A stretch of DNA of 16,009 bases from the NCBI GenBank assembly GCA_910592005.1, contig CAJVPP010002170.1, forward strand, positions 1 to 16,009, in the 5' to 3' direction. A model generated the notes under the pieces. The model was given only the letters and a program-made list of their open reading frames with translations, searched no databases and had not been told where the DNA came from. The position numbers were made by a program, and so were the translations under genes. Origin of the DNA: Funneliformis mosseae. Its lineage: Eukaryota > Glomeromycota > Glomeromycetes > Glomerales > Glomeraceae. This document shows, one piece after another, positions 3,460 to 16,009 of this stretch (position 1 is its first letter; every line of letters starts with the position of its first letter).

Positions 3460-3748
3460 TATTGCAAATATTGGAATCCAAATCAATAATACTACTCGAC
3501 CGGAAGCACTAAAGTATGATCATGAAGAAAAGAATAACCGCTGAGTTATGAATAAGCTTAAAGTACTACCTCAGTACCTGCTCGATTATAATAGACGAAC
3601 TTTTGAAAAATTTATGCATAACATAGAAAAGGAATATAGAGAGCGGGTTAATGCTAATAAAAAAATGTGCTATGAAATCAAAGATCTAAAGATGCAAGTG
3701 CTGAAAGTGGAAAAAGAGCTAGCATCTATGAAGTTGGATTCTTATTAG
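3460..3748 (+). pseudogene. Downstream part of the helical/coiled-coil gene cut by the Tc1/mariner element
   Basis: The frame reads IANIGIQINNTTRPEALKYD, meets one TGA at 3542-3544, then runs open from ATG 3548 to TAG 3746-3748 (66 residues). This last piece is rich in Lys, Glu, Met and Leu (YNRRTFEKFMHNIEKEYRER, then KKMCYEIKDLKMQVLKVEK) and is predicted helical or coiled-coil. No enzymatic motif is visible and no family is recognised. Its 3' end overlaps the 3' end of the minus-strand ATPase pseudogene by 23 bp, so the two are convergent and tightly packed, as in compact viral-type elements. It is unclear whether the short ORF from 3548 is still expressed as its own protein. Confidence 0.55.
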
Positions 3749-4498
3749 TGAGAATTTAGTCCTAGCGTAAACGTATCCTGTATGGATGCTCACGAGATAC
3801 AGTTAAATCAAAAATAATGAATTTATGTTTACATAAAGCCTTGACAATAATCTTAATGATACTATGCCAGTTATTAGTATATTGACACATAATACGGCTC
3901 AGCTCGTCTGCAATACATAATCTATTAAATAAGCAGATATGTGTGAGATTTTTTCATATTATCTTTAAGCAGTCAAAATAACTCTGGGATACATATATCG
4001 AACTGATGTTATAGTGGCATTCTTTGATAAAATAAGGAATAATTTTCTCTTACACTTTTTCAGATCAGCATATACATCTTCAAATATAGTCACTGTATCT
4101 TTATCTGAAGAAAAGGAATCTACCTTAGGGGTTTTATCAGGCTTCAAAGCTCAGAATGTAATATTTTCATGATATGACTTTAGACTATTTGCAATTATCT
4201 GGAATGCTGATTTGAGGTATATATATTTCAGCTCTTTGAGTTGGTAACTGATGAGTAATAAATCATCACACTTAATATAATATATCCCTTCTTTTTTCTC
4301 ATTAAACATTCGATAAAGCTTATTTCTGAGCATGAAATTGAGAATCTTATTAGTTTTCCCTGAATTAGTACGACCAGAGATTAGTAAAGTGAAAGGTCAT
4401 TAGGGAACAAATGAATATCCGTTATATTTTTTGGCATCTTTAATCTCATTAATATGATATACAAGCCTATCAACTGGTTCAAGCTTTTTTATTTTCAT
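3726..4498 (-). pseudogene. A32-like (FtsK/HerA-type) DNA-packaging ATPase, decayed
   Basis: From ATG at 4496-4498 the frame gives MKIKKLEPVDRLVYHINEIK, then, after two stops (TAA TGA near 4393-4398), PFTLLISGRTNSGKTNK: a classic Walker A P-loop GRTNSGKT at 4352-4375. A Walker B-like strand TVTIFEDVY lies near 4074-4100. After a one-base loss near 4055 the frame resumes as EKIIPYF, ISSIYVSQSYFD (sensor-like region, near 3990) and ends with IIFDLT, HPYRIRLR, then TAG where RLRWD is expected, finishing at a later TAG (3726). Length about 257 codons matches packaging ATPases of Polintons and related large DNA viruses, which pump the genome into the capsid. It follows the nuclease-like gene and the integrase on the same strand. 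Four or more stops and one frameshift rule out function. Confidence 0.85.
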
Positions 4499-4562
4499 GA
4501 TAAACTAAGTATTATTAATGATATACTAAAAAATATCAGACTGATTTATCGGTCCTCCCTTT

Positions 4563-12082: not shown

Positions 12083-12121
12083 AATTTCTTAGCTGAAATT
12101 GTCACATCTTGCTAAGAGTAC

Positions 12122-15100
12122 TTAACAATATAATTCGATAATTTTGTCTATATTCACTTTAGATGAATTATCTTTTTTGTTATTCTGTAACTTCGATAAT
12201 GTTCGATAGCATATAATTTCTAGGCCAACTACTTTATACCATGTATTTCACAAATCAGCTAGTAATTTACACTCATCTGAATAATATAATAAATATTATT
12301 TTATGATCATGACTTTTGATTTACACTTACTGGTCTTAATAACTAATTTATACATACTGTTTCTATACTCTATATTAATCTCAAAAATTTCTTTAAACAG
12401 TGATGAAAGTTTTAAGCAGATAGAATCCTCTTACTTATCTAACATATTGAGAAAGAAACTATAATAAGCATTATTTTCTGAGCATTTTACTATTCTATCA
12501 GCATAAGTAGTATCAAATAAAGTTTTTGCATAAATGTGGGCCCCTCTTCATAGATGAGATATGATGGCTTCATCTTTTTTCAGACCTTTATAAAGGTTTT
12601 TGATATAGCCTCTAACCCACTTTTCAGCTGATTTCTGCGCTAAAGCATCTCTTATTTTTGATACTTCATCTTCATCCATTTTGTTTTCATCATCTTCGTC
12701 TTCATTCAGATCATTACCTTTATCTACCTCACCATTATCCACTTTATTATTACCTGCTTTATTAATATCTTTTAACTTTTTTAAGGCTTTCAGCACAATT
12801 TCAGATGATGGCTAGTATCTATCATTATGGTTTATAAATTACGCATAGAGCCTGATAACACTTTTCAGACAATAGTTTTTATTGATATTTTTACCAAGAC
12901 GTCTCACCACTTCTAGATACTCTATTTTGTCACCTACCTTCTATGATAAATCATTCTCAACTACAACATATTCAAAGCGTTCACCTGGTTCTAAAATTTG
13001 ATAAAGATAAGGCTTGAGTGTTAGGTCCTTTTTTATGAGCCATTTGGTATCTGCTTCTTCATGGGTATGCTTATCTCACATTTGTGAAATAAAGTGCTGT
13101 ACACTCTTGTTATTTTTATCAGGCTTCTACACGACAGTTTTAATTATTTCATTAAGATCTGTCTGTGAAATATCCTTTACAATTTCTTTGAGTACGTCTT
13201 CTACAATCTGATGTAAGATGCGTGTATTATTTACTCTTATAAATTCTTCCATAATACATTTTTCTATTTTTCAGAAAAGATTAGACTATTCCATTTTACA
13301 GTCTCAACTCCTCAGATAAAAAGCTTGTTATTAAAGTTTGGCTTGCTTATATGTGAAATGCTATAGTATTTTTTCTTTCCAGTAAATACTACCGGAAATA
13401 GAACTTCTTCATATGCCATTTTGAGATAAGAGAACCTGTTATCATTTCTGAGGAAGCCGTTAACTTCATCGTAAAGTTTCTTTATTTTTCCATGAAAATT
13501 TATACCATTCAAGACCAATATTTTTCTTTTGAGATTCCATTATCATAGTCATATAACTCATCGTATTTCTGAAAATACTCTTCTGGGCAGACAAGATATA
13601 AGGAATCAGTATCCTCATATTTTTATTGGAAATCCTTACTTTTAATAAAATCTGCAACAAGTTTAATATTTATCTGTTCAGCTGATGTAATGCCTTCAGC
13701 CAGTTCTCGCAAGAAGAAAGGGGATTTGCTATCTCTAGTGGTGCTATAAAATGAATTTATGTATACTTTAAGAGCACTTTATTTCGCATCTAAGCAGGAA
13801 TAGTCAAAACAAACTGAATTATATTCTGCCATAAATTCATGCTTTTCTTTATTAATAAAATAATATAAATCCTCGCTAAGGCTGACACGTTTTTTTCCTC
13901 TACATTTGCTAAAACCTGCTTGATAGATTTCAATAATGATAAACCTTTATCCATTAAACCAATTACTAGATCCATGTTTTCCTTTTTCACTTTCAAAAGA
14001 GCGAGACGTTTCTTTATCTCATTCTGTTTACCAGATAAATATTCTAACACATTAGTATAAAGCCCTTTTTCTTCGGGAATGTTATTATGCTAAATAGACC
14101 ATGTAAGAATATTTCAATTTTTGAATTTAAAACTAATTTTGTAGAGCTTTTTACCACTTTTTTAGCATGCTCTCGAGATAATATGATTTTATCAGGTAAG
14201 AGGTTGTATATTATGATAAGGTTTGGATACAAGAATGTAAAATCCAAACCTGTGACAGGAAATATATTTTCAAGACCTTTCTTTGACGGAAAGACATAAG
14301 CCCAGGATATTTTTCAGTTTCAGCATTTCCTTTTGAAATTGTACTTGTTAGAACTCCTTTCAGTGTTGTCATGAGATATTGATAGGACACTGATAGGATA
14401 CTGATGGGATATAGATGGGACAGATAGGACCTTTGGGACATAGTGTAAGACAGGTTGAGACATATAGCTGAGACATATAGCTAGGACAATAAATCTCTAG
14501 GATATCATAAATGTACATCACTGACTCCTCCCACCACATACGAAATTACACACTTTCATTCCTATTGTAAAATAATGCGCATCAAACAATGACAGAAAAG
14601 ATATGCTTGCAACCTCCCTATATTCATTAATTAAATTACGCTTGACCATTAACTGCTAGTAACTAAGAGCGTCGATAATGCAATATTTGATCACTTTACG
14701 CATATGTTCAGCTGTTGTGACATTTGTTTCTTTTAATACCCTTTCATAATATTTGTTCATGTGATAAATAAGTAAATCCACTTTATTGTTAAGATTACAC
14801 TCCCTTAAGTAATATATGAGACTACTTTTTTCAGCTTTAGAATAGAATTCCTTAAAATAGGGTCAGATATCAATAGCTACACAGCCAGGAATTTTAAGAT
14901 ATTTTAAATAGAATTTTCTATCATTTACTTTTATCATATTATATTAATATTCCCATTTTATAATTTTTCCAGACTCAATAGCTTGAATAACAATAAATTT
15001 CCAGTCATATTGTGAATCATTAAAGCCTATTTGTATATCTGAGGCTAAGAGTTTCCAACATAATGCGAATGCTTTCAGTAAATTGGTCTGGGATTCACAT

Positions 15101-16009
15101 ATGATTGTAATCCATCGCAAATCTGATACCGTTTCAATATCAACAAAACAGATTTGTTTTAATTGTTTAGGATTATCTTTCTAATGAATTGTTATACAAA
15201 TTATGAACACAACATCTTTTTCGTATTTTGCATTAGGTATCTCACCCATTTTTTATGAGCTATATATTTTGATATCCCATATGAGAATAAGGGTGCAATC
15301 CTGTAAAAGTGCTGAGGAAAATAATAGATTATTATAATCGTCCTCACTTGTTGGATTGTAATTATTCACAGAAACTTGAAAGCGATAAGTACTCCCTTGA
15401 ATATATTCGTAGAAATAATTATTTAACATTATCTAACTTGAAAGATGTAATCTTTTTCACAGGTTACTTTACGGTAATAATATATTAGGATTAGATCATC
15501 AGAAGCTATATGGATATTGACTTTAAGAACTGCCTTTAACGTATTATACTGGTTAAATTGATTTCAAGTAATAACACGTATATATGATTTTTTCTTTGTA
15601 TGATATCCTCGAAGTGAGAAAGTACTAATATTCTCAATCCCAAATTATGATGTACCTTTGAGAGTATTGAATAATATATTTACTAATATAGTCTTAAATG
15701 TAGATAGTGGTATCTCTTCAGATACTTTAACATCAAAGAAGGGCTTAATGCCTGTAATTTTTACAACTGCTTTTTGTCCATTAATTAAAGTACCAGTAAT
15801 ACGCAAAATATAAGAGAAGACACCATTTATACAGTAGTGGTCATAAGTATCTGACCGCCTGAGATCGTCTAAAATTATTATATAACTACCTCTTAAATTT
15901 TCCAGAAATATAATATAACACAATACATGATTACCTGTAAATTTATAAGTGTCGATGATACAAAAAAAAAATTTAGATGATCATCAAACTTTCGCTTGAA
16001 AAATGGAAC
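12122..16009 (-). pseudogene. Family B DNA polymerase with 3'-5' exonuclease, decayed and truncated by the window edge
   Basis: N-terminal segments read RGSYIIILDDLRRSDTYDHY and LRITGTLINGQKAVVKITGI (15645-15923). Exonuclease: Exo I region WDIKIYSS (15262-15279; Lys where DIE is expected), Exo II GFNDSQYDW (15001-15027), then VIKYCIIDALSY and NLINEYREVASISF. Polymerase: motif A DFTFLYP (14224-14244), motif B LDAKQSALKVYINSFYS (Gly to Ser; KVYINSFYS at 13743-13769), motif C KYEDTDSLYLVCP (YEDTDS at 13602-13619), then LKMAYEEVLFPVVFTGKKKY, thumb LYQILEPGERFEYVVVEN and GDKIEYLEVVRRLGKNIN, an Asp/Glu-rich insert near 12680, and a long tail to TAA 12122-12124. At about 1,300 codons it is at the large end of the family and would copy the element's DNA. 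Frameshifts include runs near 15970, 14310 and 13888, and more near 15440, 14095, 13520 and 13300; stops are numerous; a minisatellite splits it at about 14376-14515. Confidence 0.95.
14376..14515. repeat. Degenerate minisatellite inside the polymerase gene
   Basis: On the plus strand, units of about 11 bp such as GATAGGACACT, GATAGGATACT and GATGGGATATA are followed by GATGGGACA, GATAGGACC, then GGGACATAG and two ACATATAGCT-type units (GAGACATATAGCTGAGAC). The stretch lies between the polymerase segments ending CNFVCGGRSQ (about 14521) and starting KGVLTSTISKG (about 14365). It makes the gap between that point and motif A some 45 codons longer than I would expect for the family, so it looks like an insertion or expansion. 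Confidence 0.75.

What the first reader, a model, noticed from the sequence alone, without database searches (positions are those of the whole stretch)
3726..16009. Polinton/Maverick-like element carrying a Gag-retropepsin gene instead of recognisable Polinton capsid and protease genes
Seen: integrase, A32-like ATPase and family B polymerase frames within about 12 kb, in compact divergent and convergent arrangement, with a coiled-coil/Gag/zinc-knuckle/aspartic-protease gene 48 bp from the integrase start. Known: Polintons normally pair these core genes with an adenovirus-type cysteine protease and double-jelly-roll capsid proteins; Gag and retropepsin belong to reverse-transcribing elements. 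Inference: a DNA element may have adopted a retroelement capsid module, giving a hybrid virus-like system.
Basis: partly seen in the sequence, partly recalled or inferred. Interest (0 to 1): 0.88.

Follow-up and report, generated by a model that had tools for sequence, protein, structure and literature searches.

The report
Fungal virus-like DNA element with Gag
In what is likely an arbuscular mycorrhizal fungus, many decayed copies of one DNA element family carry an integrase, a packaging-type ATPase and a likely giant-virus-type DNA polymerase, and next to the integrase a Gag-protease gene otherwise known from retroelements that is predicted to have built the element's protein shell.

Summary
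The gene set is real, and Gag belongs to it. The 82-Mb genome holds 68 clustered Gag-core loci; an integrase lies within 5 kb of 51 (44 divergent, mostly about 1 kb away; 6 in a second fixed order; 1 other), against about 1.7 by chance. No direct repeats of 60 bp or more were found at 8 loci checked. Only 2 of 68 share a contig with one of 150 listed reverse transcriptases, 4 and 44 kb away. Older Gag-core pairs show purifying selection (19 pairs, median dN/dS 0.35).

The Polinton label fails: the polymerase is not protein-primed and matches, at 1.3e-37 and 2.4e-33, PDB polymerases that I recall as African swine fever virus's. Jelly-roll capsid, adenoviral protease and terminal inverted repeats were not found, but those tests are weak.

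In other copies an unrelated second core replaces the Gag core while coiled coil and protease stay. The window copy is broken.

Most likely: a chimeric integrating DNA element with giant-virus-type replication and a retroelement Gag-protease shell. Capsid function is inferred; no structure or particle was tested.

The parts
825..1190 (+). Left element gene of unknown function (surviving piece); travels with the element in both gene orders
   Evidence: tblastn with L058:6823-7329 finds window 825-1190 (34%, 1.7e-19), L008 and L042
3545..3748 (+). Small coiled-coil frame between left gene and ATPase
   Evidence: open frame; longer relatives in C1881 and C493 left arms, by eye
3957..4396 (-). A32-like packaging ATPase, broken
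   Evidence: whole-genome matches 3957-4085 and 4034-4396; window 4151-4396 matches L065 at 5e-19; L065 is Pox_A32 6.5e-13, above cut-off
4720..4953 (-). Short frame upstream of the ATPase; weakly like the N-terminal part of one ATPase frame (possible nuclease domain, recalled motif only)
   Evidence: BLASTP of 4747-4953 to L067 0.004; no Pfam match
5042..6270 (-). rve-type integrase, broken; start codon read at 6216; third catalytic acidic residue is K here
   Evidence: tblastn, alignment A2, PF00665 in relatives
6184..6360 (.). Divergent junction (integrase start, 48-bp spacer, Gag start), where DNA similarity to other copies switches
   Evidence: integrase-side matches of 6 contigs end at query 2881 and Gag-side matches of 4 contigs begin at query 2705; C2486 runs through
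6265..9744 (+). Gag-retropepsin gene, broken: coiled coil 6501-6947, Gag core 7345-8061, knuckle about 8595-8650 with lost cysteines, retropepsin 9211-9738
9871..10319 (-). Conserved element gene of unknown function (X29b)
   Evidence: tblastn; no Pfam match in L029:2130-2660
10763..11377 (+). Coiled-coil protein with a C-terminal hydrophobic stretch; other copies have a different coiled-coil protein (L016p) here
12128..15831 (-). Family B DNA polymerase, broken and cut off at its N-terminus by another repeat
   Evidence: PF03104 1.1e-9; relatives PF00136 2e-9 and PDB 8ywg/9l8u 1.3e-37 and 2.4e-33; DNA matches end at 15829-15831
15828..16009 (.). Start of a different repeat (not part of the element)
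   Evidence: 94% match to C1404:30-212, where it also abuts a Gag copy

Best explanation
The window holds one decayed copy of a dispersed integrating DNA element, likely of a glomeromycotinan fungus, whose gene set joins an rve integrase, an A32-like ATPase and a likely asfarvirus-type DNA polymerase with a Gag-retropepsin gene that is predicted to make its capsid. Shown: the gene set, its repeated co-location, and past purifying selection on the Gag core. Inferred: the integrase and Gag are made from one divergent promoter. Gag assembles through its coiled coil and core, the knuckle binds nucleic acid, and the retropepsin cuts the polyprotein. The polymerase copies the element as DNA without a terminal protein. 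The ATPase helps to load DNA into the Gag shell, and the integrase inserts it elsewhere. The Gag core itself seems exchangeable: a second core without detectable similarity occupies the same place in many copies.
For: Co-location: 51 of 68 Gag-core loci have an integrase within 5 kb (44 divergent, 41 of these at 0.9-1.9 kb; 6 co-oriented 4.3-4.5 kb downstream; 1 other), about 1.7 expected. 30 of 68 have the ATPase and 26 of 68 the polymerase in the expected orientation (lower bounds). Second core: 39 of 58 loci with a divergent integrase within 5 kb. Identity: Retrotrans_gag 18 of 31, gag-asp_proteas 7 of 31, zf-CCHC 1 of 31 at E up to 0.01; DDI1-type retropepsin 3.9e-4 in PDB; of 8 homologues read in full, three (P0035, P0040, P0048; 918-1096 aa) show coiled coil, Gag core, CCHC and protease in one frame. 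Polymerase: PF00136 and PF03104 above cut-off, PDB 1.3e-37 and 2.4e-33. ATPase: Pox_A32 above cut-off in 3 of 3 open relatives. Selection: Gag core 1, 19 of 45 pairs have dS of at least 0.3, median dN/dS 0.35, every bootstrap upper bound below 1; core 2, 6 pairs, median 0.39. Pairs share copies and are not independent.
Against: A32 ATPases are known to me only with jelly-roll capsids, so the pairing has no mechanism precedent. 17 of 68 Gag loci show no listed integrase within 5 kb (partly list truncation, e.g. C1789, whose locus L023 holds one). 63 of 105 further integrase rows lie on contigs with neither core listed; some show the Gag leader (e.g. C464, C490) or the protease (C493), most were not examined. 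Two of four opened loci show no recognisable Gag. None of the 6 second-order contigs has a polymerase row, and 10 kb of C1613 shows none, so those copies may lack it. Element ends and terminal repeats were not found. 7 of 10 aligned integrase copies, the window's included, have K at the third catalytic position, as has an open 358-aa frame. Gag pairs with dS under 0.3 are near neutral (26 pairs, median 0.72), and the coiled coil shows little constraint (15 pairs, median 0.78). The dN/dS filter keeps better-conserved stretches, which lowers the ratio.
Confidence: 0.6

Rival explanations
1. Satellite of a giant virus: the element replicates itself but borrows a jelly-roll shell from a fungal asfarvirus-like helper; Gag-protease does another job, such as condensing or moving the DNA.
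For: Polymerase is likely of the same type as the asfar-like sequences reported in Rhizophagus (PMC10640383, PMC5294986, passages); an A32 ATPase suits such shells; no capsid gene was recognised in the frames scanned.
Against: No helper was tested here; PF04451 gave 0 matches in this genome, though no control rang either. A gene with coiled coil, core, knuckle and protease in one order looks like a structural polyprotein.
Confidence: 0.17
2. Gag-protease and integrase came together from one Ty3/gypsy-like element into a replicon with polymerase and ATPase; Gag is a carried remnant with a non-capsid role (for example DNA binding or integrase delivery).
For: Integrase and Gag are the most often linked pair, and the second-order copies show Gag and integrase but no polymerase row; gypsy-type integrases are shared with Polintons (PMC2836005, start of abstract, passages).
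Against: Purifying selection on the Gag core and on the protease; replacement of the core with coiled coil and protease kept suggests the core does something that is selected.
Confidence: 0.13
3. An ordinary Gag of an LTR retrotransposon was inserted beside a Polinton integrase by chance in this window.
For: Pfam resemblance to Retrotrans_gag; reverse transcriptases are common in the genome (150 listed).
Against: Repeated fixed spacing; no direct repeats of 60 bp or more at 8 of 8 stretches; no close reverse transcriptase among those scored.
Confidence: 0.03
4. A true but fast-evolving Polinton whose capsid and protease genes were missed.
For: rve integrase plus packaging ATPase plus family B polymerase is the Polinton core (PMC4028283, passages).
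Against: Polymerase is not protein-primed; the other genes seen between the known ones in the window are coiled-coil or short frames.
Confidence: 0.07

Closest known systems
Polinton/Maverick elements
   Same: rve integrase, A32/FtsK-type packaging ATPase, own family B polymerase, compact divergent genes
   Different: Polymerase not protein-primed; Gag-retropepsin present and no jelly-roll capsids or cysteine protease recognised; terminal inverted repeats not found; full length unknown (over 12 kb)
Tlr elements of Tetrahymena
   Same: rve integrase and packaging ATPase kept while the replication gene differs from Polintons (PMC4028283 passages)
   Different: Tlr has a superfamily 1 helicase and jelly-roll capsid genes; here likely asfarvirus-type PolB and Gag
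Asfarvirus-like endogenous sequences in Rhizophagus (PMC5294986; PMC10640383)
   Same: Likely the same polymerase type in the same fungal group
   Different: Those were read as past virus infection or a 1.5-Mb insertion; here the polymerase sits in a multicopy element with integrase and Gag
Ty3/gypsy LTR retrotransposons
   Same: Gag core, CCHC knuckle, retropepsin in one polyprotein; rve integrase
   Different: No reverse transcriptase or LTR-like repeats seen beside these Gag genes; integrase is a separate gene; DNA polymerase and ATPase present

Membership tests
Polinton/Maverick | rve-type integrase | tested here: met
   PF00665 in relatives; below the curated cut-off in the copies themselves
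Polinton/Maverick | FtsK/A32-type packaging ATPase | tested here: met
   Pox_A32 6.5e-13, 2.4e-11, 2.8e-8 in 3 of 3 open relatives; window piece 5e-19 to the first
Polinton/Maverick | protein-primed family B polymerase (pPolB) | tested here: not met
   No PF03175 match in any polymerase piece scanned; PF00136/PF03104 and a PDB polymerase recalled as not protein-primed instead
Polinton/Maverick | double-jelly-roll major and jelly-roll minor capsid | tested here: inconclusive
   None in Pfam scans of the window and of selected open frames of its relatives; PF04451 0 in genome but no control rang; no structure search possible
Polinton/Maverick | adenovirus-type cysteine protease | tested here: inconclusive
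   PF00770 0 in genome, no control rang
Polinton/Maverick | terminal inverted repeats | tested here: inconclusive
   No left-right match at E 1e-3; only four matches of 32-47 bp, all between different copies, at E 1e-2; the left end may not be reached
LTR retrotransposon (Ty3/gypsy) | Gag with retropepsin | tested here: met
LTR retrotransposon (Ty3/gypsy) | reverse transcriptase beside Gag | tested here: not met
   PF00078: 150 of 709 candidates scored; only C1755 (4.2 kb) and C56 (44 kb) share a contig with Gag
LTR retrotransposon (Ty3/gypsy) | long terminal direct repeats around Gag | tested here: not met
   0 of 8 stretches, ungapped repeats of 60 bp or more, about 1.5 kb of flank
Asfarviridae / Nucleocytoviricota insertion | asfarvirus-type PolB | tested here: inconclusive
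   Best PDB matches by far, but the virus identity of those entries is recalled and no tree was built
Asfarviridae / Nucleocytoviricota insertion | jelly-roll capsid and other giant-virus core genes alongside | tested here: inconclusive
   Only PolB and the A32-like ATPase recognised in the copies read; single-model capsid search 0, control silent

The most novel reading that the evidence does not exclude
A previously undescribed class of chimeric virus: an integrating double-stranded DNA virus of mycorrhizal fungi that replicates with a giant-virus polymerase, packages with an A32 ATPase and builds its particle from a retrovirus-type Gag-protease. Its capsid core is swapped like a cassette between unrelated folds. 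It is the source of at least part of the 'asfarvirus' signal reported from Rhizophagus.
Probability: 0.45. Interest if true: 0.96.

Novelty: new variant of a known kind. Interest (0 to 1): 0.85.

Why it matters
Capsid type is a main anchor of virus classification, and Gag shells are tied to reverse transcription. A DNA-replicating element that keeps a Gag-protease gene under selection would break that tie and could be a capsid replacement caught in many stages. It also offers another source for the asfarvirus-like polymerases reported from Rhizophagus: a mobile element rather than virus infection. Both are testable with published glomeromycotinan genomes.

Tried and rejected
Rejected: an alternative genetic code. 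Reading TAA/TAG as Q lengthens frames on both strands alike and leaves TGA stops; homologues in other fungi are open under the standard code, so the stops mean decay. Rejected: LTR retrotransposon insertion. Rejected: Polinton membership (polymerase type). Led nowhere: viral-contig scans with Gag, integrase, second core and ATPase gave no relatives; with PolB, 6 loci with distant polymerases, in which the other query proteins found nothing. PDB search with the integrase and ATPase alignments and one ATPase frame found nothing useful. Profile comparison of the two cores gave no significant similarity, so the second core is called a core by position only. An exact 18-mer was found in none of 64 loci. 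No structure could be predicted.

Counts, limits: one search used typed lists in which second pieces of one copy and weak rows were left out, so its ATPase and polymerase counts are lower bounds; one dummy row was filtered. One search used all 68 clustered Gag loci and the integrase rows that lie on Gag contigs. One search used 58 loci out of the 135 matches, leaving out rows that match only the shared leader or are ambiguous (for example C1789, C2708, C3419) and merging pieces. Lists are cut at about 150 rows. The chance figure 1.7 is a crude product of counts and lengths. Some likenesses (leader of L063, small coiled-coil frame, catalytic residues) were read by eye.

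
Full report
What is in the window. The window is contig C2170 of an 82.0-Mb, 4154-contig genome. Homologues of its Gag and polymerase that carry a name are all from Glomeromycotina, so the host is very likely an arbuscular mycorrhizal fungus; the genome itself is unnamed. Reading frames are short and full of stops, and direct Pfam scans of stop-masked frames reach, beyond chance level, only the PolB exonuclease domain and a Tc1/mariner transposase. The finding therefore had to be tested through other copies.

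Copies. blastn of window 3480-16009 against its own genome gave 84 matches at 66-94% identity, and 30 loci were fetched. Mapping protein pieces onto them shows a common order: ATPase(-), integrase(-), then Gag-protease(+), X29b(-), a coiled-coil protein with hydrophobic tail(+) or an alternative coiled-coil protein, then polymerase(-); most loci span only part of it. A Tc1/mariner copy (about 2116-3457) sits inside it and its empty site is visible in L008. At 15828 another repeat, 94% identical to part of C1404, begins and the polymerase match stops.

Counting. With a Gag core from L032 as query, the genome gave 84 rows, which cluster to 68 loci. An integrase lies within 5 kb of 51 of the 68: 44 divergent (41 of these at 0.9-1.9 kb, then 2.1, 3.8 and 4.7 kb), 6 co-oriented 4.3-4.5 kb downstream, and 1 co-oriented upstream. 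About 1.7 would be expected by chance. The ATPase is found for 30 of 68 and the polymerase for 26 of 68 in the expected orientation; 21 have both integrase and polymerase; 48 have at least one of the three by the stricter rule. The second order was read in C1613 (L058, L057): left gene, Gag, coiled-coil tail protein, then ATPase and integrase. No polymerase was found there, and none of the 6 contigs with this order has a row in the polymerase list. 17 of 68 loci have no listed integrase within 5 kb; some of these are list truncation (C1789 has one in L023).

Not a retrotransposon. Of 150 listed reverse transcriptases (of 709 candidates), only two lie on a contig with a Gag locus, at 4.2 and 44 kb. 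No ungapped direct repeat of 60 bp or more was found in 8 of 8 stretches around Gag.

What the proteins are. Gag: 18 of 31 homologues match Retrotrans_gag (best 3.7e-6), 7 of 31 gag-asp_proteas, 1 zf-CCHC, at E up to 0.01; the family profile finds DDI1 retropepsin-like domains in PDB at 3.9e-4. Of 8 homologues read, P0035, P0040 and P0048 show coiled coil, Gag core, CCHC knuckle and D-S/T-G protease in one frame. In the window the protease DSG motif remains while knuckle cysteines are lost. ATPase: three open relatives hit Pox_A32 above the curated cut-off (6.5e-13, 2.4e-11, 2.8e-8), and the window piece matches the first at 5e-19. Integrase: rve 6.4e-6 at best, under the cut-off, but PF00665 is precomputed for many of the homologues listed; the catalytic residues were read by eye, and 7 of 10 aligned copies have K for the last one. 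Polymerase: PF00136 2e-9, PF03104 up to 2.8e-12; the PDB hits stand out at 1.3e-37 for the middle part and 2.4e-33 for the N-terminal part, the next kinds of polymerase being at 0.032 and 0.0012. I recall these entries as the African swine fever virus polymerase; the tool says only 'DNA polymerase'. PF03175, the protein-primed type, is absent from these pieces, though it occurs elsewhere in the genome at C2643 and C2982, contigs without a listed Gag core.

Was Gag useful? For Gag core 1, 19 of 45 copy pairs have dS of at least 0.3, with median dN/dS 0.35 and every bootstrap interval ending below 1; the 26 younger pairs have median 0.72, as expected of copies decaying after insertion. Medians in a first run: protease 0.19 (27 pairs), integrase 0.25 (31) and 0.40 (10), polymerase 0.17 (3, one of them 1.05) and 0.40 (6), Gag core 0.61 (36), coiled coil 0.78 (15). 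Cautions: the filter keeps alignable stretches, pairs share copies, and the method is simple counting.

Core swapping. Four integrase loci without a detected Gag core were opened. Two (C1811, C3785) have a gene with coiled coil and protease (a knuckle was seen in C1811 only) but another core; two show nothing recognisable. The second core has 58 loci in the genome, 39 with a divergent integrase within 5 kb, 37 of them at 0.67-1.35 kb. An open 549-aa stretch (L063) shows a leader like that of the window's Gag. The core has no Pfam match to a capsid family and no PDB match, and no significant profile similarity to core 1, yet is under constraint (6 pairs, median 0.39). Of 105 integrase rows on contigs without core 1, 63 lie on contigs with no listed core 2 either; most were not examined. 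Separately, DNA similarity between copies switches in the 177-bp integrase/Gag junction (window 6184-6360): the window and L032 share 67% of the Gag core but 38% of the integrase, whereas L020 shares 75% of the integrase C-terminal part with the window but only 36% of the Gag core with L032. So modules have been exchanged near that junction.

Mechanism. Shown: gene set, co-location, multicopy dispersal, past constraint, module exchange. Inferred: self-synthesis by the polymerase, packaging by the ATPase, shell from Gag-protease, insertion by the integrase. The weakest link is the shell, because no structure could be computed and A32 ATPases are known to me only with jelly-roll shells. Copies without a detected polymerase may depend on others.

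Comparison. [quoted passage not shown] this element meets two and fails one of these, and the capsid, protease and terminal-repeat tests are inconclusive. Tlr elements are a precedent for keeping integrase and ATPase while changing the replication gene. PMC5294986 (passages) reports Rhizophagus polymerase sequences within Asfarviridae and reads them as a sign of infection; PMC10640383 (passages) describes a 1.5-Mb asfarvirus-like insertion in one strain of R. irregularis, absent from four others, and reports no major capsid or A32 gene. That the older signal comes from this element is my inference. Maverick elements are named in Rhizophagus repeat studies without gene detail in the passages read (PMC8647823, PMC11075540). 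Among the papers listed by ten searches of the held open-access library, none was seen to describe a Gag-bearing Polinton or this gene set (listings and starts of abstracts only, except the papers named; several listings were cut). Subscription papers, preprints and repeat databases were not searched.

Noticed in passing
window 2100-3473: Tc1/mariner-like element with 44-nt inverted arms (86% complementary) and transposase helix-turn-helix domains; its empty site is seen in L008 at 1474/1475.
   Followed up: yes
window 15828-16009 and G000:C1404:30-212: A different, probably young repeat (94% identical) begins where the polymerase match stops here and abuts a Gag copy in C1404.
   Followed up: partly
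L055:343-1419 (+) and window 5593-6270 (-): One integrase lineage has lysine where the third catalytic acid should be, even in an open 358-aa frame; it may be inactive or act with a partner.
   Followed up: partly
L067:171-1199 (-); window 4747-4953 (-): One ATPase frame carries an extra N-terminal domain with a nuclease-like look (recalled motif); the window has a weak counterpart (BLASTP 0.004).
   Followed up: partly
L037 1691-2284, L038 1480-1769, L020 421-1218: Arrays and scattered copies of short repeats lie beyond the polymerase start and at some left arms; they may mark element ends.
   Followed up: partly
G000:C2643 and G000:C2982 (L001, L002): The only two matches listed for the protein-primed polymerase family in this genome, on contigs without a listed Gag core: possible classical Polintons or linear plasmids.
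   Followed up: no
G000:C1613, C897, C1720, C1406, C2566, C2082: Second gene order, Gag 4.3-4.5 kb upstream of a co-oriented integrase, with no polymerase row; may be a separate, non-replicating or differently replicating lineage.
   Followed up: partly
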